This document shows positions 1 to 24,917 of a DNA stretch of 24,917 nucleotides, piece after piece; within the stretch, counting starts at the first letter, position 1, and every line of letters begins with the position of its first letter. Below the pieces are notes generated by a model. It made no database searches and was not told the origin of the DNA. It saw only the letters and a program-made list of their open reading frames with translations. This DNA is from a virus. The DNA lies in IMG/VR virus record IMGVR_UViG_3300005932_000017, positions 1-24,917 of that record, one strand, 5' to 3'. Made by a program: the position numbers and the translations under genes.

Positions 1-1
1 T

Positions 2-325
2 GCTTCATCAGTTTACTTTACTAATGTATCAAATCATTATGGTGACACGACAATTGAAGTGAAGCTGGCAGTAGGCGAACCAACACTTCGTTACAGCTGG
101 TACATGGACACAAATCCAAGCTGGGATAACCAAAATCAGTGGGCGTATGGAATACCAACAGGTCAAGGCGGTCAATATGGCGGACCTGATCCCACTGCCG
201 GATATACAGAAGACAATGTTCTTGGATATAATCTATATGGAGATTATCCGAATAATCTCTCAGAAACAAATCTCACCTCTACCGCGATAAATTGCTCTGA
301 TCTTTACGGGATCACTGTGGGTTGA
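2..325 (+). pseudogene. 3'-truncated host gene for a secreted repeat/adhesion-type protein
   Basis: An open frame enters from the left edge and stops at TGA 323-325 after about 107 residues. It contains WYMDTNPSWDNQNQWAYGIP, then GQGGQYGGPDPTAGYT and NVLGYNLYGDYPNN. This W-x-G-x-PTGQGG..PDPT-GYT..NV-GYNL-GDY pattern with a following TAI-(D/N)-CS segment is familiar from large exported proteases and surface proteins of Cloacimonadota-like and other FCB-group bacteria. In those proteins the segment normally continues into a beta-sandwich domain. Here the frame ends abruptly just after the CSDLYGITV segment, where the phage-like terminal motif begins, so the gene appears interrupted by prophage insertion. 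The rest of the host gene would lie beyond the right end of the prophage, outside the window. The family assignment is from memory of the motif and is moderate. Confidence 0.6.
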
Positions 326-497
326 CAAATGGTTTGGCAATTGAGGGATTTGACGCTGACTTTTTGTAACTTACCTATTGTAAACCACTTACATTAATAT
401 TGCCGACACATAATGGACAAACCTCGTGTCATAAAAAAGTGGTGATTTTGGGAAAATTGTGACAGCGGTTTGTCCAATTGTGACAGCGGTTTGTCCA
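323..497. repeat. Cluster of four transposase-site-like repeats at the prophage left end
   Basis: There are four copies of TGACA-N2/3-GGTTTG(T/G)C(C/A)A. They lie at 323-342 (plus, TGACAAATGGTTTGGCAATT), 414-431 (minus), and 460-476 and 481-497 (plus, TGACAGCGGTTTGTCCA). The last two sit in perfect tandem 21-bp units (456-476, 477-497). Multiple 20-22 bp sites in mixed orientation at one end are what MuA-family transposases bind. Three further copies lie inside phage genes at 1585-1601, 12038-12054 and 12464-12480. The function is inferred. Confidence 0.65.
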
Positions 498-545
498 TTA
501 TGGTTGGGATTGCTGCGAAGTGAGTATTTGCAGCGTGTTGCGGTA

Positions 546-686
546 TTACGTTTGTTTTTTATGCAGCTCTTCGACTTGCTCATGACAGGCAATGAGTTTG
601 CGTTGCAGCTCGAATATTTCCTGCTTGAGTTCCCGTACATGCTCCTGGTCCCGGCGCTGGGATGCCTGCTCGTTGAGGTCCTTGTT
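546..686 (-). pseudogene. 3' remnant of a leftward coiled-coil gene, possibly the phage repressor
   Basis: Reading the minus strand from 686 down to TAA at 548-546 gives about 46 residues rich in heptad leucines and charge: RELKQEIFELQRKLI, then ACHEQVEELHKKQT. There is no ATG in this frame. The frame is closed upstream by TGA inside the CRISPR-like repeat (687-689), so only the 3' end of a gene survives. Its position, divergent from the first early gene, is where Mu-like phages carry the repressor. Many phage repressors of the XRE type end in such a coil, so a broken repressor is a reasonable inference. A transposase or structural coiled coil is also possible. The plus-strand open frame over the same bases (459-758) looks like its antisense shadow. 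Confidence 0.45.
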
Positions 687-795
687 TCAATCCTTGATTT
701 AATGGAATCAGCTAAACAAACTACTCGCCCTCATTCTCCTTTATGTTATTATATATAGTTTCAATCCTTGATTTAATGGAATCAGCTAAACAAAC
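684..795 (-). CRISPR. Minimal CRISPR-like array: two identical 38-bp repeats, one 36-bp spacer
   Basis: Bases 684-721 and 758-795 are identical over 38 bp, starting GTTTCAATCCTTGATTTAAT and ending CAGCTAAACAAAC. They are separated by a unique 36-bp spacer at 722-757. Read on the minus strand the repeat ends in GGATTGAAAC, the ATTGAAAC 3' end that gives the 8-nt crRNA handle of many type I-B and III systems. This makes leftward transcription likely, with the leader side at 796-896. Repeat and spacer lengths fit CRISPR exactly. No cas genes are visible in the window, so any crRNA would depend on host Cas proteins. Only two repeats means the call rests on geometry and sequence style. Confidence 0.75.
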
Positions 796-896
796 AAATA
801 TATTTTGCTAAATAGCAAGAAAAACTTGACACCTTAAATTCGACTGAATTAATTCAGCACCATAGATTAAGAAAAAATAAAATAGAGGTGTAAACA
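796..896. promoter_or_regulatory. Divergent control region between the CRISPR unit and the first early gene
   Basis: This AT-rich stretch holds a perfect dyad TTGCTA-AA-TAGCAA (805-818) and a TTGACA box (826-831). The TTGACA box has a weak -10 candidate about 17 bp on (849-854, TTAATT). A perfect 14-bp palindrome CTGAATTAATTCAG (844-857) overlaps that -10. A Shine-Dalgarno-like GAGGTG lies at 885-890, ahead of ATG 897. The dyad over the promoter is what a small repressor such as the product of the next gene could bind. The same stretch would be the leader of the leftward CRISPR unit. Confidence 0.5.
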
Positions 897-948
897 ATGT
901 CAAGAAAAAAAGAAAAAGTGAAGTTCGATTCAGTCGAATTTAAGGTGT
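829..948. repeat. Perfect 21-bp inverted repeat bracketing the first early start codon
   Basis: Bases 829-849 (ACACCTTAAATTCGACTGAA, then T) are the exact reverse complement of 928-948. The right arm lies inside the first early gene at codons 11-18. The 78-nt loop contains the ribosome binding site and ATG 897. In RNA initiated upstream of 829, a 21-bp stem would close around the translation start. If transcription starts after the left arm, the arms can act only as paired DNA sites. Confidence 0.8.
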
Positions 949-1100
949 TTTGCATTAGGAATTATGGTACAATTAAGGCGTTCGCTGACAAGCACGGGCT
1001 TTCATATCAGACCTGTAAACATATCTCATCAGGGAAATTGGAATCAACAAAAGTAGTAATGAAAATTAAACAAATCGTGTGGGACGAGAGGGGGGACTGA
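897..1100 (+). CDS. Small HTH-like DNA-binding protein, Ner/Cro-like position
   Basis: This 67-residue, lysine-rich protein has a central segment GTIKAFADKHGLSYQTCKHI that reads as a helix-turn-helix (ADKHGLS turn followed by a recognition helix). It is the first rightward gene of the prophage and sits directly ahead of the transposase. That is where Mu-like phages carry Ner or Cro-type regulators. The ATG at 897 has GAGGTG 6 bases upstream. The stop overlaps the next start (TGATG, 1098-1102). Codons 11-18 form one arm of the 21-bp inverted repeat, so autoregulation at RNA or DNA level is plausible. No specific family is recognised; the role is inferred from size, motif and place. Confidence 0.65.
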   Translation: MSRKKEKVKFDSVEFKVFCIRNYGTIKAFADKHGLSYQTCKHISSGKLESTKVVMKIKQIVWDERGD

Positions 1101-1264
1101 TGGAAACAACCGCAGTACTCGCACTCATCTTCTTATACACTATATGTAATAATACATATATAAATAAGAAGATTCATTATTATATGGCAGCCAGCCGGTC
1201 CAGACGCTGGCAGCAGCAGGCAATAAAATCATTACAAGCACAGTGCAAAAATCCAATAAAGTAA
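1100..1264 (+). CDS. Small single-pass membrane protein, unknown function
   Basis: ATG 1100 overlaps the preceding stop, with a GAGAGGGGGGA purine run just upstream. This encodes 54 residues. The N-terminus (TTAVLALIFLYTICNNTYI) is a likely transmembrane helix. The rest is basic and polar (SRSRRWQQQAIKSLQAQCK). It is cotranscribed with the regulator before it. Small membrane peptides are common in this position of transposable phages, but I recognise no family. The 1140-1185 stretch is unusually AT-rich, and the coding call rests mainly on start coupling. Confidence 0.5.
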   Translation: METTAVLALIFLYTICNNTYINKKIHYYMAASRSRRWQQQAIKSLQAQCKNPIK

Positions 1265-1316: not shown

Positions 1317-3548
1317 ATGTGGTACACAACAAAAGAACTCGCTGATCTCCTGGGTGTATCTGAGCGGACCATCCAGAGGAGAGCAAAAAAGGGCGAGTGG
1401 GAAACCAGGATGGAACCTGGACATGGCGGGAATGGAGAGGTGTATAAGATTTTTTACGATCCAAAACTCAGCGACACGATCAACGACATATCAACGACAC
1501 ATCAACGACATGTCAACGACATGAACTCAGCGACACAAACTCAGCGACACTCAACGACACCTCCGGACACCATTGCGGACACTTTGGACAAACCTCTGTC
1601 ACACGTTCCCAAGCAGGGGCTTAGGAACGAGAACGTGGAGTTGGGGCTTAGGGAAAAGGGTGAAAGCGTAAAAGCGGCAGAACGGAAGATCGAGCTTTTT
1701 AGAACATCTCTCGACTGCACTCCGTACGCTGAGATGCCGGATGAATATCTCAGGGAAGCTTTTTTGAAGGGCAAAATGTGCGAAGAGTATCTCTCAAATA
1801 ACAACATCGAATCAAAAAAAGAACGCATGAAAATCCTACTCAAGCTGTTCAATCATAGAATGTACCTGTCAGAGCTCGAAGATATCACCGGCAGCATATC
1901 CGAGCGCACATTCAGGCGATGGCTCAAGAAATATATTGAAGCAGGGAGAGATTACCGGGTGCTGGTCCGTAAGTATATTCATCATTATCGCGGGCGCAGC
2001 ATACCGGAGGATATTCAAAATAGACTATTACGAGAATTAAGACACCCTAATAGAATTGCAATTGGAACTGCAATCCTGAACGTACAGGATCATTATAGGA
2101 TCGCAGGAAAAGAGATCGATGTGTCCGAGCGAACAATGCGCAGGTGGATCGATGATTGGAAGGTGCAGAATCCTCATCTTTGGACAATATCACGTGAAGG
2201 GCTCAAGGCGTATGACGAGAAAATCAACAAAACCATCTTGCGTGATCTGAACCTGCTTGAGGTAGGCGATGTGTGGGTTGCGGACGGGCACGATCTTTCA
2301 TTCGACATAATTGATCCCTATGATCAGAAACCCAGGCGTATGACGCTGATAGTGTGGTTCGATATGAGGTCCAGGATGCCGGTTGGCTGTGCGATCAATA
2401 GCACAGAGGATTCGCAGTGCATTGCGCTTGCCCTTCGTAATGCGATATTGTTCACCGGATACCGTCCGAAATTTGTGTATCTCGATAATGGCAAGGCATT
2501 CAAATCGAAGATATTCGTCTCAAAACCTGCTGATCACGATCTTGAAAATGAACTCGGCGGGTACTTCTACCGGCTGGGTATCTCACCTCACTTCGCTATT
2601 CCTTACAATGCAAAGGCAAAGATCGTTGAGAGATTTTTCCGCACAGTGCAGGACCAGTATGAGCGATTGGTGCCGAGTTTCCGCGGTCGAAATATAGAGG
2701 ACAAGCCGGCGACGTTATACAGGAATGAGAAGTGGATGCAGAAATTGTATGAGCGCAAGCCGCTCACAATGGATGAGTTCAAACTGACCTTTTCCTTCTG
2801 GGTGATGGAATTGTATGCGCAGCACGAACATGAAGGGCTTGGTGGACAGAAGCCGATCAATGTGTTACGCAGCGCTGAGATCGAGGACTATCTGAAAGTG
2901 GAACCGTCCGAACTGAACCATCTCATGTTGTGCACCAAGCGACGAAAAATATTAAATAATGGAGTGAAGCACAATAAATTATGGTACTGGGCTGAGGAAA
3001 TGGTCACGCACGTTGGACAGATCTGTATGATCAGGTATGACAATTTCAATATCAACTCAATCCTGGTGTATGACGAGAAGGACAATTACATCTGCCAGGC
3101 GCGTGTGAGGAAATTACAGCATCCGCTTGTACACCTCACCGGCGACATCGAAACAAAGCGTGACCTGGAGCGTGAGATCAAGCAGATCAGAAGGATTAAG
3201 AAGCAGCATAAAAAGGCAACAAAGGAGTTCATGCAGCAGGTCGAGGGAGATCAGCTCATACCCGACAAATCGGTAGGGGCGTTGTTCAATGATATACCAC
3301 TTATCAGCGAAGAGGGAGAAAGCGAGAAAGCGATAAAGCGGGAAAAGAAAGAAGCTAAATTAAGAGAATTTTTCAACAATCCGGCTTCGACAGACTACGC
3401 CGAGGCAAGCGAAAAAGACGAAAAAAATGCCGAGGAATTGAGGCGATTATTTACCACAGAGAACACAGAGAAAAAAGATGAAAAAGAAAATAAAACAAAC
3501 ATAGACCTGCATAAGCTCTATGAACATGTGGGACTGAAGGAAAAATGA
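1317..3548 (+). CDS. MuA-like DDE transposase (phage integrase/replication)
   Basis: This 743-residue protein joins phage ends to target DNA and drives replicative transposition. An N-terminal winged-helix MuA-type domain (WYTTKELADLLGVSERTIQR, residues 2-21, then GEWETR..G..G..Y) is followed by a variable linker (about 50-125). More HTH segments follow at about 175-210 and 260-290. The catalytic core has D323 (VADGHD), D390 (YLDNGKAF) and E438 (KAKIVERFFRT). The D-D spacing of 67 equals that of MuA (D269/D336). The C-terminal part (about 510-743) is basic and coiled, as expected for the MuB-contacting region. ATG 1317 follows a GTAGGTAGG purine run. The linker is encoded by short direct repeats and a palindromic element. 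The tail FTTENTEKKDEKENK is encoded by a CCACAGAGAACACAGAG-type dispersed repeat. MuB-like ATPase is next, as in Mu. Confidence 0.95.
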   Translation: MWYTTKELADLLGVSERTIQRRAKKGEWETRMEPGHGGNGEVYKIFYDPKLSDTINDISTTHQRHVNDMNSATQTQRHSTTPPDTIADTLDKPLSHVPKQGLRNENVELGLREKGESVKAAERKIELFRTSLDCTPYAEMPDEYLREAFLKGKMCEEYLSNNNIESKKERMKILLKLFNHRMYLSELEDITGSISERTFRRWLKKYIEAGRDYRVLVRKYIHHYRGRSIPEDIQNRLLRELRHPNRIAIGTAILNVQDHYRIAGKEIDVSERTMRRWIDDWKVQNPHLWTISREGLKAYDEKINKTILRDLNLLEVGDVWVADGHDLSFDIIDPYDQKPRRMTLIVWFDMRSRMPVGCAINSTEDSQCIALALRNAILFTGYRPKFVYLDNGKAFKSKIFVSKPADHDLENELGGYFYRLGISPHFAIPYNAKAKIVERFFRTVQDQYERLVPSFRGRNIEDKPATLYRNEKWMQKLYERKPLTMDEFKLTFSFWVMELYAQHEHEGLGGQKPINVLRSAEIEDYLKVEPSELNHLMLCTKRRKILNNGVKHNKLWYWAEEMVTHVGQICMIRYDNFNINSILVYDEKDNYICQARVRKLQHPLVHLTGDIETKRDLEREIKQIRRIKKQHKKATKEFMQQVEGDQLIPDKSVGALFNDIPLISEEGESEKAIKREKKEAKLREFFNNPASTDYAEASEKDEKNAEELRRLFTTENTEKKDEKENKTNIDLHKLYEHVGLKEK
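1465..1560 (+). repeat. Tandem 11-bp direct repeats inside the transposase linker
   Basis: There are four head-to-tail 11-bp units, (A/G)TCAACGACA(T/C), at 1479-1489, 1490-1500, 1501-1511 and 1512-1522. A partial fifth lies at 1551-1560. Three copies of AACTCAGCGACAC surround them at 1465-1477, 1524-1536 and 1538-1550. The 11-bp period is one helical turn and is not a multiple of three, so the encoded residues shift frame through the array. This looks like an iteron-type protein-binding array or a microsatellite expansion in a permissive linker. Confidence 0.75.
1585..1631. repeat. Internal transposase-site-like repeat plus REP-like palindrome within the transposase gene
   Basis: Bases 1585-1601 (TGGACAAACCTCTGTCA) are the reverse complement of the left-end motif with one base changed. 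Bases 1604-1631 form the palindrome CGTTCCCAAG-CAGGGG-CTTAGGAACGAG. Related palindromes occur at 10331-10356 and 10752-10778. Both are translated in frame as a linker segment (LDKPLSHVPKQGLRNENVE). Confidence 0.7.
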
Positions 3549-3579: not shown

Positions 3580-4317
3580 ATGAAAGAAAATGTAATGACT
3601 GAAATCAAGAATACGAGAGAAGCCCTGAATTGTATCCGCTACTTGCAGAATCGACCAAAATCTGAAATGGTAGGGCTGGGACTATTTTACGGCGATCCGG
3701 GTGTATCGAAAACCCGCTTCGCTTTCAAATTCGCAACGACATTCGACTTCATGTATATTCGCCTGGTAGCTGCCATGACAACAAAAGGATTTCTGCTGGA
3801 GATACATAGAGTGCTCAGGCATAAGTATTCACTCGGAGATGACGAACCGCGCGGGAACACATACAAAATATACTGCATTGTCAGGGATATTCTCGCAATT
3901 CATCCGGACGCAGTGATCTTCATAGATGAGATAGATTACGCTTTTGGCGACAAGAAGATGCTCGGCAGCATACGTGATCTCGCAGATCAGACAAGTGCGA
4001 TCGTGATAATGGTGGGCATGCAGAACGCCAAGCATGAGCTACTGAAATCGAACCCTCACTTCTTCGACAGGACCAATTATTTTGTGCGCTTCGATGTGCT
4101 ATCACTATCTGAGGTGCAGCGTGTGTGCAAGGACATATCCGACGTAGAGATCGACGCCGAAATCGTGCGTCAGATACAAAAGATGACCGGTGGAAACATC
4201 AGAAAAATCGTGAAGGCAATGTATGCGATAGAGACCATTGCACAGCATAATGAAGTGAGCCGGCTCGAATATAAGGATGTACCGGACGGATTACTACAAA
4301 TAGGAGTGCAGAAATGA
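3580..4317 (+). CDS. MuB-like AAA+ ATPase, transposition target selector
   Basis: This 245-residue ATPase has Walker A GDPGVSKT (38-45) and Walker B AVIFIDEID (D116, E117). A sensor-1-like stretch IVIMVGMQNAKHELL follows, then a C-terminal helical lid GGNIRKIVKAMYAIE. In the Mu/Tn7/IS21 families such proteins polymerise on target DNA and activate the transposase. It lies 31 bp after the transposase, with AGGAG ahead of ATG 3580. It is shorter than MuB (312 residues) because it lacks the N-terminal HTH domain and starts nearly at the ATPase. The second-to-last Walker A residue before Lys is Ser where Gly is usual. The gap before it contains CAAATTTCAAATTTCAAAT, a simple repeat. An IstB-type protein is the nearest alternative, but the partner gene and the phage context argue for MuB. 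Confidence 0.9.
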   Translation: MKENVMTEIKNTREALNCIRYLQNRPKSEMVGLGLFYGDPGVSKTRFAFKFATTFDFMYIRLVAAMTTKGFLLEIHRVLRHKYSLGDDEPRGNTYKIYCIVRDILAIHPDAVIFIDEIDYAFGDKKMLGSIRDLADQTSAIVIMVGMQNAKHELLKSNPHFFDRTNYFVRFDVLSLSEVQRVCKDISDVEIDAEIVRQIQKMTGGNIRKIVKAMYAIETIAQHNEVSRLEYKDVPDGLLQIGVQK

Positions 4318-5784: not shown

Positions 5785-6388
5785 GGTCATAATGGAAAAA
5801 GAGGTCAAGTTCTGGCTGGACTCAGAAGCTCACAGGATTCCCATCAAGTTCATCGGAACGACCGACAAAAAACGAGATGCGCTTGTAGAGCGTATCCTCA
5901 AAAAAGTGGAAACAACTCAGCTTCGCATGAAGCAGTTGAAAGAAAAGATCGATATGGACATGGACAGATTCCTCGAAAGCGTCGCTGCGGAATACGGCGA
6001 GAACTGGAAGGGCAACGCACTACTTAGAAATTTCGATCAATCAAAAGAAGTACAGGTAAAATACGGACAGACAATCGGATTCGACGAGCGTCTGCAAATT
6101 GCCAAGCAGCTCATCGATAAGTGTATCGAGAAGTGGTCTGAAGGATCTGACATGAAGATCCGTATGCTCGTGAACCAGGCATTCAAAGTCGATAAAAAAG
6201 GACAGCTGGACTCGAAGATGATACTCTCACTCCGTCAGGTGAAGATAAACGATAAGGATTGGAAGCAGGCAATGGAACTCATCGCAGACTCTGTGAAGAT
6301 CGAGAACCGCAGGAAGTACTTCATCTTCAAACGTAAAGATGTCAATGGAGACTGGCAGACCATCTCGCTCAATTTTAGCTATCTGTAG
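5777..6388 (+). CDS. DUF3164 family Mu-like phage protein
   Basis: This 203-residue protein matches the DUF3164 pattern found almost only in Mu-like phages. Helical N-terminus, YGENWKGNALLRNFDQSKEV, then FDERLQIAKQLIDKCIEKW, LVNQAFKVDKKGQLDSKMIL, and a final INDKDWKQAMELIADSVKI with YFIFKRKDVNGDWQTISL. ATG 5777 is chosen because GGGAGG lies 7 bases upstream; a further in-frame start at 5711 lies inside the previous gene. The molecular function is not established. Its place in the early operon suggests a role in replication or regulation rather than in the virion. Confidence 0.85.
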   Translation: MAKVIMEKEVKFWLDSEAHRIPIKFIGTTDKKRDALVERILKKVETTQLRMKQLKEKIDMDMDRFLESVAAEYGENWKGNALLRNFDQSKEVQVKYGQTIGFDERLQIAKQLIDKCIEKWSEGSDMKIRMLVNQAFKVDKKGQLDSKMILSLRQVKINDKDWKQAMELIADSVKIENRRKYFIFKRKDVNGDWQTISLNFSYL

Positions 6389-10591: not shown

Positions 10592-10685
10592 GGAGAGGTA
10601 GGCATAATGGTGTTGCAGGAAGCTTATACCTTCTTGGGGAAGCTGATTACTTCCCTTGCGGGTTCGAATCCCGTCCTCTCCTCCA
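10592..10685 (+). tRNA. Class II tRNA with apparent UAU anticodon and encoded CCA
   Basis: The acceptor GGAGAGG (10592-10598) pairs perfectly with CCTCTCC (10675-10681), with discriminator T 10682 and CCA 10683-10685. The D-arm is a 3-bp stem GCA/TGC (10602-10604, 10614-10616) around TAATGGTGT with the conserved GG. The anticodon stem GGAAG/CTTCT (10618-10622, 10630-10634) encloses loop CTTATAC. This puts U33 at 10624 and the anticodon at 10625-10627 (UAU). A 23-nt variable region (10635-10657) folds as GGGAAG/CTTCCC. The T-arm is GCGGG-TTCGAAT-CCCGT. The long variable arm is the class II form of Ser, Leu and Tyr tRNAs, yet UAU reads the isoleucine codon AUA. U73 and three bases between the acceptor and D stems are also unusual. 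Confidence 0.8.
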
Positions 10686-10796: not shown

Positions 10797-13316
10797 CTAA
10801 CTTTTAAACGCCATTGTCCCTGTCCTATACATATCCGCACCTGCGCTGTCAATATACTTGATCGAGTTGAGAGCGCCTTTGCCGGTCTGTGCGACGAAGG
10901 TATTTCCACCCGCATATTTCTTCATATACGTGAACTGCTTATCAGCCGGAGAGAGCCATATCTCATTGGGAGATTTCAGTGTCTCTTCGATGCAGCTGAG
11001 GTGTTGGAAAAGATCCTGCATTTCATTCTGTGACATTGCAAAGCTATCCTTCTTTGCGAGTTTAAGCGGAAGCCCGGACGCATCAGAGATCACCCGATCC
11101 TGCACATAATTATTATACAGATCCGTGAGTTCCAGTTTGGTCATATCAACAGTTGCGAGTTTCTCAGGGAGTGTTGCTTTCCCGGCTTTGCTCCACTCAT
11201 TCAAACCAAGTGCAGCGTATGTTTTGGAGAGCACATTCTTATCAGCCAGCCATGAGCTCCAGATGTTATTGTCTGCGCCTGTATTCTTTGCCCATTCAGT
11301 TGGGAGATCGATCTGAGCAGGTTCTCTGCCATACATAGGATCGGACAGTGCTTCTTCTTCTGTAAGCTGTTCTACATCACACGCACAATTCCAATCATTT
11401 GGCGGATAGTAAGTGAGCCAGAATGGATCATCGATAGGAAGGACCGTTCCGTGCAGTTCTTTATGAGATATGCGCGAGTTCTCAAGGAACATGCAGATAT
11501 ATCTCAGGTAGGGAAAGATGTCTTTTTGATCCTGTGCCTGGTTCCACTTTGAAGCGAGATATGCGTTGTTGGTTGCGGTCGAGAAGTTGGTCCGTACATA
11601 GTATGGATTGTCCGGTTCAAAGCCCTTGACCTGCACATCTTTCTTCCAGTCTGCAAAGGTTTTACCTTGCAGCAGAGCGTTCGCAGCTTCGTCCTTGAGC
11701 ATAGAGAGTGTGTCCTCTGCATGAACGCCGGCGACAAGGAACGCCTCAGCCCTGAACGCATGGACAGCTTCGAGATTTGGCGATGTCCAGTCTATTTCAA
11801 AAACCTCGTTCCGGGGATGGATGTGCCGGTTTAAATTAGTTGTAGAATTTCTTCCCAGCATATAGGAGGTATGTATGAGGGCAGCGAGTCCTTCCCCGAA
11901 AGCGAGATGTATATTCAGAGGGTATGAAAGTTCGTTGTAGTCATCGAAGGATTTGAGCTTTTTAAGATAGTCTTTATAGCCCTGTGTTGCGCTCGATACG
12001 AGCCCGAGTTGTTTCTCTATTTCTACGGCAGCGACATTGGACAAACCTCTGTCAATTCCGAAAAATCTGTCACCCTGAGATACTCGAAGTGTGCCATACT
12101 TCGACTGGCTCAGCATGACAGAACGATTAAAATTTGCGGGATCTATGCCTCCTCTTGAGGGCGGTTGAACTATCTCTCCTTCTGGGCGAGGTCTGTTATA
12201 TTTATCATAAAAATAATCGAGATCGAGCGGGAGTCCTATCTGCTGTACGAGCTTGATGTCCATGTCCAATTCTGATTTATGATCCATAAAATTGGTCTCG
12301 ATCTGCACCTTTATTTTATCGTCATTAAAATTGATATGATTGAGACGGGTAAAGAAGTTCGATATAAATACTTCGAGGTCACGGGCGTCACCTGCAAGAA
12401 TGTCGCCGCGTACCAGGTTGGCAATTTTCGCCTTTGCTTCTGATCCGTATTTTTCCTGCTCAGTGACAGCGGTTTGTCCAAGAATCCTTTTAGTCGATTT
12501 GGTCTCGCAGAAATCACATAAAGACTTATACAGGTTGCCGGAAGCGGTCTTATTGACGAAGTCCACGAACTCGACCGTGACGTTCTCGGACACCATCATT
12601 GCAAGGGAAGTGCCTGCATTTTTCAGCATGTTCCAGAGCTGATCTTTCTCTGCTTTGGTAGCGCCGGACTTGTAGGTTCCCTTACGCATCGGCTTGCCGA
12701 ATATCTCTGTGAAATCCGCCCAGTTGGTGAGCGCAAATGCCTTGAATGTGTAGAACTTGAGGAGTGATCTGAGGATTGCTTTCTTGCGTAGGATCTTAAT
12801 GACCTTCAGTTCATCAAAGCCCATCTTCTTGTCATCGGCAAAAACCTGTAGATGTCTGTCCACGATACGGAGATCTAACTGCTTATAATCGAGGAGCTGC
12901 TTCGGGAACCATAGGGAATCGATCAGCTCATACTCTACTTGCCTGAACACGAACATCTTGAGTTTTGCTTCGATCAATGCTTCAACCAGATCTGGATAGA
13001 GAGAGTCTTTTACATCTTCAAAATATTCCGACTGTGCATCAGAAAGTTCCGTAGTGATCACCGGTGCGAGCGCTTTGAGCGCCTCTGTTCGGGTATCTAT
13101 ATCGGCATCGAGATTTGTATCCTCTGTCATGAGCCGGTTGTATAATGAGTTGATAGATTGGAGTTTTCCGTAGGAGTCCAGCTCTGTTATTGCACCGCGA
13201 ATTGTACTCGGCGTGATGCTCATTTCCCGGAAGAAGGTATCCTTCTCAGGTATCTTAACCACCGTGTCATTGACCGGTTGTTTCTTTTCTTTTTTCTTAA
13301 GATTAAATATGTTCAT
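10797..13316 (-). CDS. Portal (Mu gp29-like) fused to MuF head protein and a C-terminal nuclease-like toxin domain
   Basis: This 839-residue fusion begins with a DUF935 portal domain (about 20-400): ITPSTIRGAITELDSYGKLQ, TNWADFTEIFGKPMRKGTYK and LVRGDILAG. A linker follows (about 405-435), then a MuF/gp30 minor head domain (about 440-665) with YYVRTNFSTATNNAYLASKW, SRISHKELHGTVLPIDDPFW and YYPPNDWNCACDVEQL. The last 60 residues (NEIWLSPADKQFTYMKKYAG, then a GKGALNSIKYIDSAG segment) resemble the PBECR nuclease domains that often end MuF proteins. In Mu, gp29 and gp30 are separate. AAGGAG precedes ATG 13316. The linker is encoded by dispersed repeats (12038-12121), and another repeat lies at residue 280. 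The portal and MuF calls are firm; the nuclease call is moderate. Confidence 0.85.
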   Translation of the reverse strand: MNIFNLKKKEKKQPVNDTVVKIPEKDTFFREMSITPSTIRGAITELDSYGKLQSINSLYNRLMTEDTNLDADIDTRTEALKALAPVITTELSDAQSEYFEDVKDSLYPDLVEALIEAKLKMFVFRQVEYELIDSLWFPKQLLDYKQLDLRIVDRHLQVFADDKKMGFDELKVIKILRKKAILRSLLKFYTFKAFALTNWADFTEIFGKPMRKGTYKSGATKAEKDQLWNMLKNAGTSLAMMVSENVTVEFVDFVNKTASGNLYKSLCDFCETKSTKRILGQTAVTEQEKYGSEAKAKIANLVRGDILAGDARDLEVFISNFFTRLNHINFNDDKIKVQIETNFMDHKSELDMDIKLVQQIGLPLDLDYFYDKYNRPRPEGEIVQPPSRGGIDPANFNRSVMLSQSKYGTLRVSQGDRFFGIDRGLSNVAAVEIEKQLGLVSSATQGYKDYLKKLKSFDDYNELSYPLNIHLAFGEGLAALIHTSYMLGRNSTTNLNRHIHPRNEVFEIDWTSPNLEAVHAFRAEAFLVAGVHAEDTLSMLKDEAANALLQGKTFADWKKDVQVKGFEPDNPYYVRTNFSTATNNAYLASKWNQAQDQKDIFPYLRYICMFLENSRISHKELHGTVLPIDDPFWLTYYPPNDWNCACDVEQLTEEEALSDPMYGREPAQIDLPTEWAKNTGADNNIWSSWLADKNVLSKTYAALGLNEWSKAGKATLPEKLATVDMTKLELTDLYNNYVQDRVISDASGLPLKLAKKDSFAMSQNEMQDLFQHLSCIEETLKSPNEIWLSPADKQFTYMKKYAGGNTFVAQTGKGALNSIKYIDSAGADMYRTGTMAFKS
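12038..12121. repeat. Dispersed repeats encoding the portal-MuF linker
   Basis: TGGACAAACCTCTGTCA (12038-12054) is a copy of the left-end motif in minus orientation. Bases 12067-12121 form a palindromic element with paired TGTCA/TGACA, CTGAG/CTCAG and TCGAAGT/ACTTCGA arms, a well-known style of intergenic repeat in environmental bacteria. Both lie between portal and MuF domains and keep the frame open. Confidence 0.7.
12464..12480 (+). repeat. Copy of the left-end TGACAGCGGTTTGTCCA motif in the portal gene
   Basis: It is a 17-bp exact match to the tandem copies at 460-476 and 481-497. On the coding strand it gives GQTAVTE near portal residue 280. Confidence 0.85.
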
Positions 13317-23794: not shown

Positions 23795-24917
23795 AATTCA
23801 TACAGGGCTGGAACCTAAGTTTTGGGTTCGATGAAGAGACCGATATCACACCGACCGGTCTTGAACACACAGAGCTGGATCACGATCCCGAGCGCTTCAT
23901 GTCAGAGGATTTCTTTTTGAGAGAGCCGCGAGAGGCGCGGATCAAATTTTTTAGAACACAATTTTTGCTCGATCACTTTGTCTATCCTCCCGCCGATGAG
24001 ATCATAAATGTGGTATTATATAAGGATGAGGACGGCAACATAATAGAGGAGAGTCAATATGATCCTGAGACCTGCACAAAGGACGTGGTGGTCAACAGGT
24101 ATTCGAAGATCATAGTAAAAATACTTGAGGACGACCGGTTGATCTTCCTGGGGCTTGTACAGCTTAATGAGGTGCCGGATGACACAGAAGAAATCTCCAT
24201 CACATGCACGGACTTTCTCGATCTGTTCCAGTCATATTCTGAGGCGCTTATATATAATGTACCCGGGGAGAACTCATACGGATACTATTTCTCCAAATCA
24301 ATAGTACAGTCCTTGATCGATATTATTGTGGACACGACCGGGCTCAATCTCCAGTACTCACTTAATGATGACATCTTCATGGAGTGGGTGAGCGACTACA
24401 CAGTATATTCAGATCCGAATCTTGATCCCGATCTTGTCACCTTCACTGTTCCTCAATACAGCAACTGGGTTGATTACTGGCAGTTCACTAATGTTTTACG
24501 AACAGCGTCGGTGCCCGAAGAGTCAGTTGTATTTTACCAGGTATTTGGATTTTGGGTAACATCCGCAGCAGGGGAGACATACTATTGCAGCATCAAATGG
24601 AAGAAATATTCACCGATAACCGGCTGGAGCGATGAGCTTGAGACGACATATACACTCGTTGAGGACTTAGGGGTTGGCGGTTATGATAGATTTTTACAGC
24701 AGATTGATGACTGGCGTATCGAATGGCTTGCATCGATAGGATCGGGGCAGCTGTTCTTATTGCCTCCTGATTATTTTTATTACGTTGAGGACAATCGCTT
24801 GGTACGATTTCGTCAGGAATGGTGGAGCGCTGCGATACCGTACCGGTCCGGCAATCAGAAATATATAGACCTACTTAAGGTGATCACTCTTGTGAATAAT
24901 CTAACCATCTACCAGGA
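23782..24917 (+). CDS. Tail protein, partial (runs off the right edge)
   Basis: The frame is open from ATG 23782 to the end of the window, 378 codons and more. GTGGAGAG precedes the ATG. The product starts MFEVKFIQGWNLSFGFDEET and is acidic and rich in Trp and Tyr. It has FFLREPREARIKFFRTQFLL, SKIIVKILEDDRLIFLGLVQ and SITCTDFLDLFQSYSEALIY. Immediately after a tape measure gene a distal tail or baseplate-hub protein is expected. The strand-rich content with aromatic residues agrees, but I do not recognise the family. No stop codon, signal peptide or membrane helix is seen. Confidence 0.7.
   Translation, partial: MFEVKFIQGWNLSFGFDEETDITPTGLEHTELDHDPERFMSEDFFLREPREARIKFFRTQFLLDHFVYPPADEIINVVLYKDEDGNIIEESQYDPETCTKDVVVNRYSKIIVKILEDDRLIFLGLVQLNEVPDDTEEISITCTDFLDLFQSYSEALIYNVPGENSYGYYFSKSIVQSLIDIIVDTTGLNLQYSLNDDIFMEWVSDYTVYSDPNLDPDLVTFTVPQYSNWVDYWQFTNVLRTASVPEESVVFYQVFGFWVTSAAGETYYCSIKWKKYSPITGWSDELETTYTLVEDLGVGGYDRFLQQIDDWRIEWLASIGSGQLFLLPPDYFYYVEDNRLVRFRQEWWSAAIPYRSGNQKYIDLLKVITLVNNLTIYQ

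What the first reader, a model, noticed from the sequence alone, without database searches (positions are those of the whole stretch)
684..795. CRISPR-like repeat-spacer-repeat unit carried in a transposable prophage
Two identical 38-bp repeats with the ATTGAAAC-type 3' end flank a single 36-bp spacer, inside the left end of a Mu-like phage and without cas genes. A phage-borne single-spacer unit could use host Cas proteins against rival phages or against the host's own elements. On the minus strand the spacer reads AAAGGAGAATGA, like a ribosome binding site and start region, which hints at a gene-start target.
Basis: partly seen in the sequence, partly recalled or inferred. Interest (0 to 1): 0.8.

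Follow-up and report, generated by a model that had tools for sequence, protein, structure and literature searches.

The report
One-spacer CRISPR array inside phage repressor
A Mu-like virus of uncultured Cloacimonadota bacteria carries a complete host-type CRISPR unit (two identical repeats around one spacer) where the front half of its immunity-repressor gene should be, and the spacer looks as if it was taken from the matching gene of a sister virus, so the virus may borrow its host's CRISPR machinery to keep relatives out.

Summary
In detail: two identical 38-bp repeats (684-721, 758-795) flank a 36-bp spacer (722-757). The repeat is letter-for-letter the repeat of CRISPR arrays in two Cloacimonadota MAGs (38-nt repeats, 36-38-nt spacers). 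The unit lies inside the phage, not in host DNA: host gene homology stops at ~297, the phage terminus is at ~324, and a relative in genome G113 shares homology on both sides of the unit. New point: in G113, and in 21 of 30 more distant relatives, a gene similar to an XRE-type repressor lies divergent to the transposase. In the window only its C-terminal tail (546-683, minus) remains, and the CRISPR unit sits where the HTH part was, in crRNA sense on the repressor strand. No cas gene and no second repressor were found. No exact protospacer was found, but the spacer matches the phage's own small gene (1116-1151, 23/36) and the orthologous G113 position (24/36) jointly better than shuffles (2 of 20,000), which suggests a third, related phage as source. 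Most likely this is a virus-borne mini-CRISPR array for excluding sister phages with host Cas proteins, a known kind; its place in the repressor gene is the unusual part. An inert scar cannot be excluded.

The parts
1..323 (+). Host gene fragment (secreted-type protein of Cloacimonadota) interrupted by the prophage
   Evidence: 75-76% DNA identity to G001:C22 and G002:C142 up to base 297; by eye, similar coding sequence continues to about 318
324..343 (+). Phage left terminus TGACAAATGGTTTGGCAATT, probable end-type transposase site
   Evidence: Same 20 nt at the end of the relative in G113:C26; similar by eye to the internal sites TGACAGCGGTTTGTCCAATT
409..502 (.). Cluster of probable transposase-binding sites (inverted copy 409-430, direct copies 455-475 and 476-497)
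   Evidence: Repeat families D4, I1, I3, I4
546..683 (-). Remaining C-terminal tail of the repressor gene (KDLNEQASQRRDQEHVRELKQEIFELQRKLIACHEQVEELHKKQT*); a stop codon (TGA) in the adjoining repeat closes the frame
   Evidence: Aligns with the C-terminus of the G113 HTH repressor, score 79, 0 of 2000 shuffles reach it; G113 protein is HTH_19/HTH_3
684..721 (-). CRISPR repeat copy (downstream repeat in crRNA sense)
   Evidence: identical to host arrays
722..757 (-). Spacer; crRNA sense 5'-TATATATAATAACATAAAGGAGAATGAGGGCGAGTA-3'
   Evidence: 36 nt as in host arrays
758..795 (-). CRISPR repeat copy (upstream repeat in crRNA sense)
796..896 (.). Divergent control region; leftward promoter-like hexamers TTGACA (903-898) and TATTTT (879-874) would transcribe the CRISPR unit in crRNA sense
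   Evidence: consensus scan only, no more hits than shuffles
829..948 (.). Perfect 21-bp inverted repeat (829-849 / 928-948) flanking the divergent region, possible operator pair
   Evidence: I2
897..1100 (+). Small HTH protein (ner/Cro-like position)
   Evidence: weak PHROG 925 HTH match, E 0.003
1100..1264 (+). Small early gene (54 aa); bases 1116-1151 resemble the spacer (23/36); orthologous G113 position 24/36
1317..3548 (+). Mu-type transposase A
   Evidence: Mu-transpos_C, rve; PHROG 310 transposase E 2e-90
3580..4317 (+). Transposition ATPase (MuB-like)
   Evidence: AAA; PHROG 296 DNA transposition protein

Best explanation
It is a virus-borne mini-CRISPR array with one spacer. It is read leftward from the control region that normally drives the phage repressor. 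The host's Cas6 cuts the transcript, and a host effector (most likely type I-B) carries the crRNA. The target is probably the small early gene next to the transposase of a related transposable phage, so a cell holding this prophage would be protected from sister phages (heterotypic superinfection exclusion). Shown by sequence: a complete repeat-spacer-repeat with host repeat, its place inside the phage, loss of the repressor's HTH part at that place, and crRNA sense matching the repressor strand. Statistical: origin of the spacer from a related phage. Inferred: transcription, processing, targeting, and that the array stands in for repressor-based immunity.
For: Repeat identical to arrays of Cloacimonadota MAGs, with spacer length as in those arrays. 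Host flank and shared ends place the unit inside the phage. The G113 relative has an HTH repressor at this place, and ORFs similar to it lie divergent to the transposase in 21 of 30 more distant phage loci. Spacer similarity to the two related phages in the same alignment register: 23/36 and 24/36, joint score reached by 2 of 20,000 dinucleotide shuffles and by 1 of 297 real host spacers. In G113's 18.5-kb contig the best match to the spacer is exactly this orthologous site. Host relative G002 has a type I-B interference module (Cas7 58% identical, Cas6-position protein 50%) related to the one beside 38-nt arrays with the same repeat 3' half in G003. Mini-arrays of one spacer and two complete repeats in viruses and proviruses are a documented kind (PMC8616872; PMC6858448).
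Against: No exact or near-exact protospacer in 125 Cloacimonadota genomes (up to 3 mismatches) or in IMG/VR (23-mer exact; degenerate in-frame pattern). The spacer similarity is not significant against the whole window alone (155 of 1000 shuffles) nor by translated comparison. No host-like leader was recognised. The effector that uses this exact repeat was not found linked to it. One genome, no reads, no RNA data.
Confidence: 0.55

Rival explanations
1. Inert scar: a piece of the host's CRISPR array recombined into the repressor gene by chance. It destroyed the repressor and produced a clear-type or defective phage; the unit has no selected role.
For: The repressor HTH part is gone and no second repressor was recognised. 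A single genome is known with this arrangement. A repressor-less transposable phage could still be sampled while replicating.
Against: The unit is an exact repeat-spacer-repeat with no partial repeats, sits in crRNA sense on the repressor strand, and its spacer resembles sister phages of the same family rather than a random host spacer (1 of 297 real spacers score as high).
Confidence: 0.25
2. RNA anti-CRISPR (Racr-like): the repeats mimic host repeats and tie up Cas6/Cas7, protecting the phage from host CRISPR immunity.
For: IMG/VR holds 17 phage loci with repeats of this family, most as solitary repeats, and such units act as Racrs in type I-F (PMC10651486).
Against: Racrs are solitary repeat units; here two identical complete repeats flank a spacer of normal length, which should give a functional crRNA.
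Confidence: 0.09
3. Assembly chimera between a host array and the phage.
For: Metagenome contig; no reads available.
Against: Needs two independent false joins 112 bp apart, each between phage-unique sequence and a repeat end; the phage sequences on both sides are homologous to one contiguous relative.
Confidence: 0.08
4. The crRNA regulates the phage's own early genes and thereby replaces the lost repressor.
For: Position in the repressor gene; partial match to the phage's own early gene (23/36).
Against: No contiguous seed match with the own site; the only 10-nt seed match lies at 24249, in a late gene far from the early region.
Confidence: 0.03

Closest known systems
Virus-borne mini-CRISPR arrays of Sulfolobales viruses SPV1/SPV2 (Medvedeva et al. 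2019, PMC6858448)
   Same: One or two spacers, host-type repeats, no cas genes, spacers aimed at closely related viruses
   Different: SPV arrays have a host-like leader and protospacers found in sister viruses, and lie between genes; here no leader was recognised, no exact protospacer found, and the unit takes the place of part of the repressor gene
Prophage-located CRISPR arrays of Clostridioides difficile (type I-B; PMC6079278)
   Same: Array in a prophage using host type I-B machinery, proposed to exclude competing phages
   Different: The C. difficile arrays are highly expressed arrays of a studied host; here one spacer in a Mu-like phage of Cloacimonadota, expression untested
Solitary repeat units / Racr RNA anti-CRISPRs (PMC10651486)
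   Same: Phage-borne copy of a host repeat; the same repeat family occurs as solitary repeats in IMG/VR phages
   Different: Two complete repeats and a spacer instead of a solitary repeat

Membership tests
Virus-borne mini-CRISPR array | One or few spacers between complete repeats, in a viral genome | tested here: met
   684-795; inside phage
Virus-borne mini-CRISPR array | Repeat identical or near identical to host array repeats | tested here: met
   Exact repeat in two Cloacimonadota MAGs
Virus-borne mini-CRISPR array | No cas genes in the virus | tested here: met
   No cas family at meaningful score; the record is incomplete on the right
Virus-borne mini-CRISPR array | Spacer matches a related virus | tested here: inconclusive
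   No exact protospacer; joint similarity to two related phages, 2 of 20,000 shuffles
Virus-borne mini-CRISPR array | Leader or promoter upstream, transcribed | tested here: inconclusive
   Promoter-like site 903-874 on the minus strand, not above chance count; no leader similarity seen by eye against G003, the one complete leader-side flank inspected
Racr / solitary repeat unit | A single repeat not associated with other repeats | tested here: not met
   Two identical repeats 74 nt apart
Mu-like transposable phage | DDE transposase with Mu C-terminal domain, ATPase B, Mu-type head genes | tested here: met
Type I-B host system | Repeat physically linked to type I-B cas genes | tested here: inconclusive
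   A 38-nt repeat with the same 3' 23 nt lies beside I-B genes in G003; no linkage for the exact repeat in G001/G002

The most novel reading that the evidence does not exclude
A temperate phage has exchanged protein-based homoimmunity (repressor) for RNA-guided immunity: the lysogeny promoter now makes a crRNA that, with host Cas proteins, blocks sister phages while sparing the phage itself.
Probability: 0.2. Interest if true: 0.8.

Novelty: new variant of a known kind. Interest (0 to 1): 0.58.

Why it matters
Mini-CRISPR arrays in viruses are known, but the best studied cases are archaeal. A copy placed in the immunity gene of a Mu-like bacteriophage links two ways of excluding superinfection, repressor and crRNA, at one locus, and suggests a concrete test of whether phages trade one for the other. 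It also extends the phenomenon to Cloacimonadota; repeats of the same family occur in other phage contigs.

Tried and rejected
RBS/start-codon reading of the spacer: the GGAG-to-ATG gap is about one base and no such site was found. Phage inserted into a host array: rejected, since host homology ends before the phage terminus and phage homology continues on both sides. Spacer targeting the phage's own genome: no match within 3 mismatches over 25 nt. Host spacer L070_1 hitting the same gene of G113: not significant once base composition is kept (356 of 3000 shuffles). Searches for close relatives in IMG/VR by transposase, terminal sequence and small-gene motif found none. The phages and plasmids collections gave no match or only chance-level matches. 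Translated comparison of the spacer was not significant.

Full report
OBSERVATION. Two 38-nt repeats, 684-721 and 758-795, are identical and flank 36 nt. A degenerate scan of GTDB genomes found only two genomes, both Cloacimonadota MAGs, with this repeat. Both hold true arrays with 38-nt repeats and 36-38-nt spacers, and the exact window repeat occurs in both. In G001 the exact variant sits on one side of the array and a one-base variant on the other.

THE UNIT IS IN THE PHAGE. Bases 1-297 match a Cloacimonadota gene at 75-76% in G001 and G002, and similar coding sequence can be followed by eye to about 318. At 324 begins TGACAAATGGTTTGGCAATT. The same sequence ends a related prophage in G113:C26, whose upstream flank is unrelated host DNA. 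That relative matches the window again at 592-656 (repressor tail), 864-907 and 1091-1437 (small gene and transposase start), so phage sequence lies on both sides of the CRISPR unit. Internal sites at 409-430, 455-475 and 476-497 resemble the terminus and are probably transposase sites.

IT TAKES THE PLACE OF THE REPRESSOR'S HTH PART. In G113 a leftward gene encodes an HTH (XRE) protein of about 123 aa. The leftward frame left of the window's unit encodes 45 residues that align with the C-terminus of that protein (score 79, best of 2000 shuffles 55). The frame is closed by a stop in the repeat. ORFs similar to the G113 protein lie divergent to the transposase in 21 of the 30 other Cloacimonadota loci. 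A motif scan of those 30 loci for the repeat's GATTGAAAC end gave one isolated hit and no repeat pair. No other repressor was recognised in the window.

ORIENTATION. The crRNA sense (repeat ending ATTGAAAC) is the minus strand, the strand of the repressor. A TTGACA-18-TATTTT site lies at 903-874 on that strand, but such sites are not above chance in number. A perfect 21-bp inverted repeat flanks this region.

SPACER. No protospacer was found in 125 Cloacimonadota genomes or IMG/VR, nor elsewhere in the window. The spacer's plus strand does resemble window 1116-1151, inside the small gene before the transposase (23/36), and the position aligned to it in G113 (24/36). The two phages share 22/36 there, so the spacer behaves like a third homologue. 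The joint score, 47, was reached by 2 of 20,000 dinucleotide shuffles and by 1 of 297 real host spacers. That test covers the 324 bp alignable between the two phages, chosen after the first hit was seen. Against the whole window alone the match is not significant, nor is a translated comparison. I treat it as good but not conclusive evidence that the spacer came from a related phage. The crRNA would be antisense to the early transcript.

HOST MACHINERY. G003 has an array whose repeat shares the last 23 nt with ours, near cas4-cas1-cas3-cas5-cas7 of type I-B. G002 has a related I-B module (Cas7 58%, Cas6-position protein 50%, Cas3 39%), but its cas1 contig carries a different, 30-nt repeat. G001 carries type III-B Cmr genes with a Cas6-RT-Cas1 fusion and its own array. 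The effector for this exact repeat is therefore inferred, not shown.

PRECEDENT. A review describes viral mini-arrays of one spacer with two complete repeats identical to host repeats, many aimed at other viruses (PMC8616872). SPV1/SPV2 arrays target each other (PMC6858448). C. difficile arrays lie in prophages (PMC6079278). Solitary repeats can act as RNA anti-CRISPRs (PMC10651486). A scan of IMG/VR for the core of this repeat family gave 17 loci, mostly solitary repeats, with a few mini-arrays; none sits in a recognisable repressor gene by inspection of neighbours, though one (L090) lies near a small HTH gene. Paper searches with Mu-like, repressor, prophage and superinfection terms showed no report of such an array in a repressor gene among the titles and abstracts returned; this covers open-licence papers only.

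VERDICT. Observation confirmed; interpretation partly supported. It is a virus-borne mini-CRISPR array of known kind, with an unusual placement seen so far only here. Function is inferred.

Noticed in passing
L003 291-341, L002 about 5978-6019, L109 1694-1737: In three arrays of two genomes, with two different repeats, the last repeat keeps ATTG but AAAC is replaced by the palindrome TCCCGACAGGTCGGGAT; a REP-like element seems to sit at array ends.
   Followed up: no
window 1584-1610 versus 451-477: A near copy (inverted, 85% over 27 nt) of the phage-end transposase site lies inside the transposase gene, next to tandem ATCAACGACA repeats (1479-1560).
   Followed up: no
window 829-849 and 928-948: Perfect 21-bp inverted repeat with 78 nt between, one arm inside the coding region of the small HTH gene.
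   Followed up: no
window 10592-10682: A tRNA gene (Rfam 46 bits) between the early genes and the head genes of the phage.
   Followed up: no
L096 and L099 (IMGVR_UViG_3300009528_000013): One 117.8-kb virus record holds two separate mini-arrays of the CCATTAAAACAAGGATTGAAAC repeat family; L092 from another record carries one of them too.
   Followed up: partly
L069 355-13483: Type III-B Cmr genes plus a Cas6-reverse transcriptase-Cas1 fusion with its own array in a Cloacimonadota MAG, about 5 kb from the array with the window's repeat.
   Followed up: partly
L044 2234-2812 (G113): In the G113 prophage the transposase N-terminus is followed in one frame by sequence of the C-terminal part of the ORF6N anti-repressor, so an internal deletion seems to have left a remnant.
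   Followed up: no
window 10797-13316: Mu-type portal, gpF-like domain and a C-terminal PBECR2 nuclease-like domain are read as one 839-aa protein.
   Followed up: no
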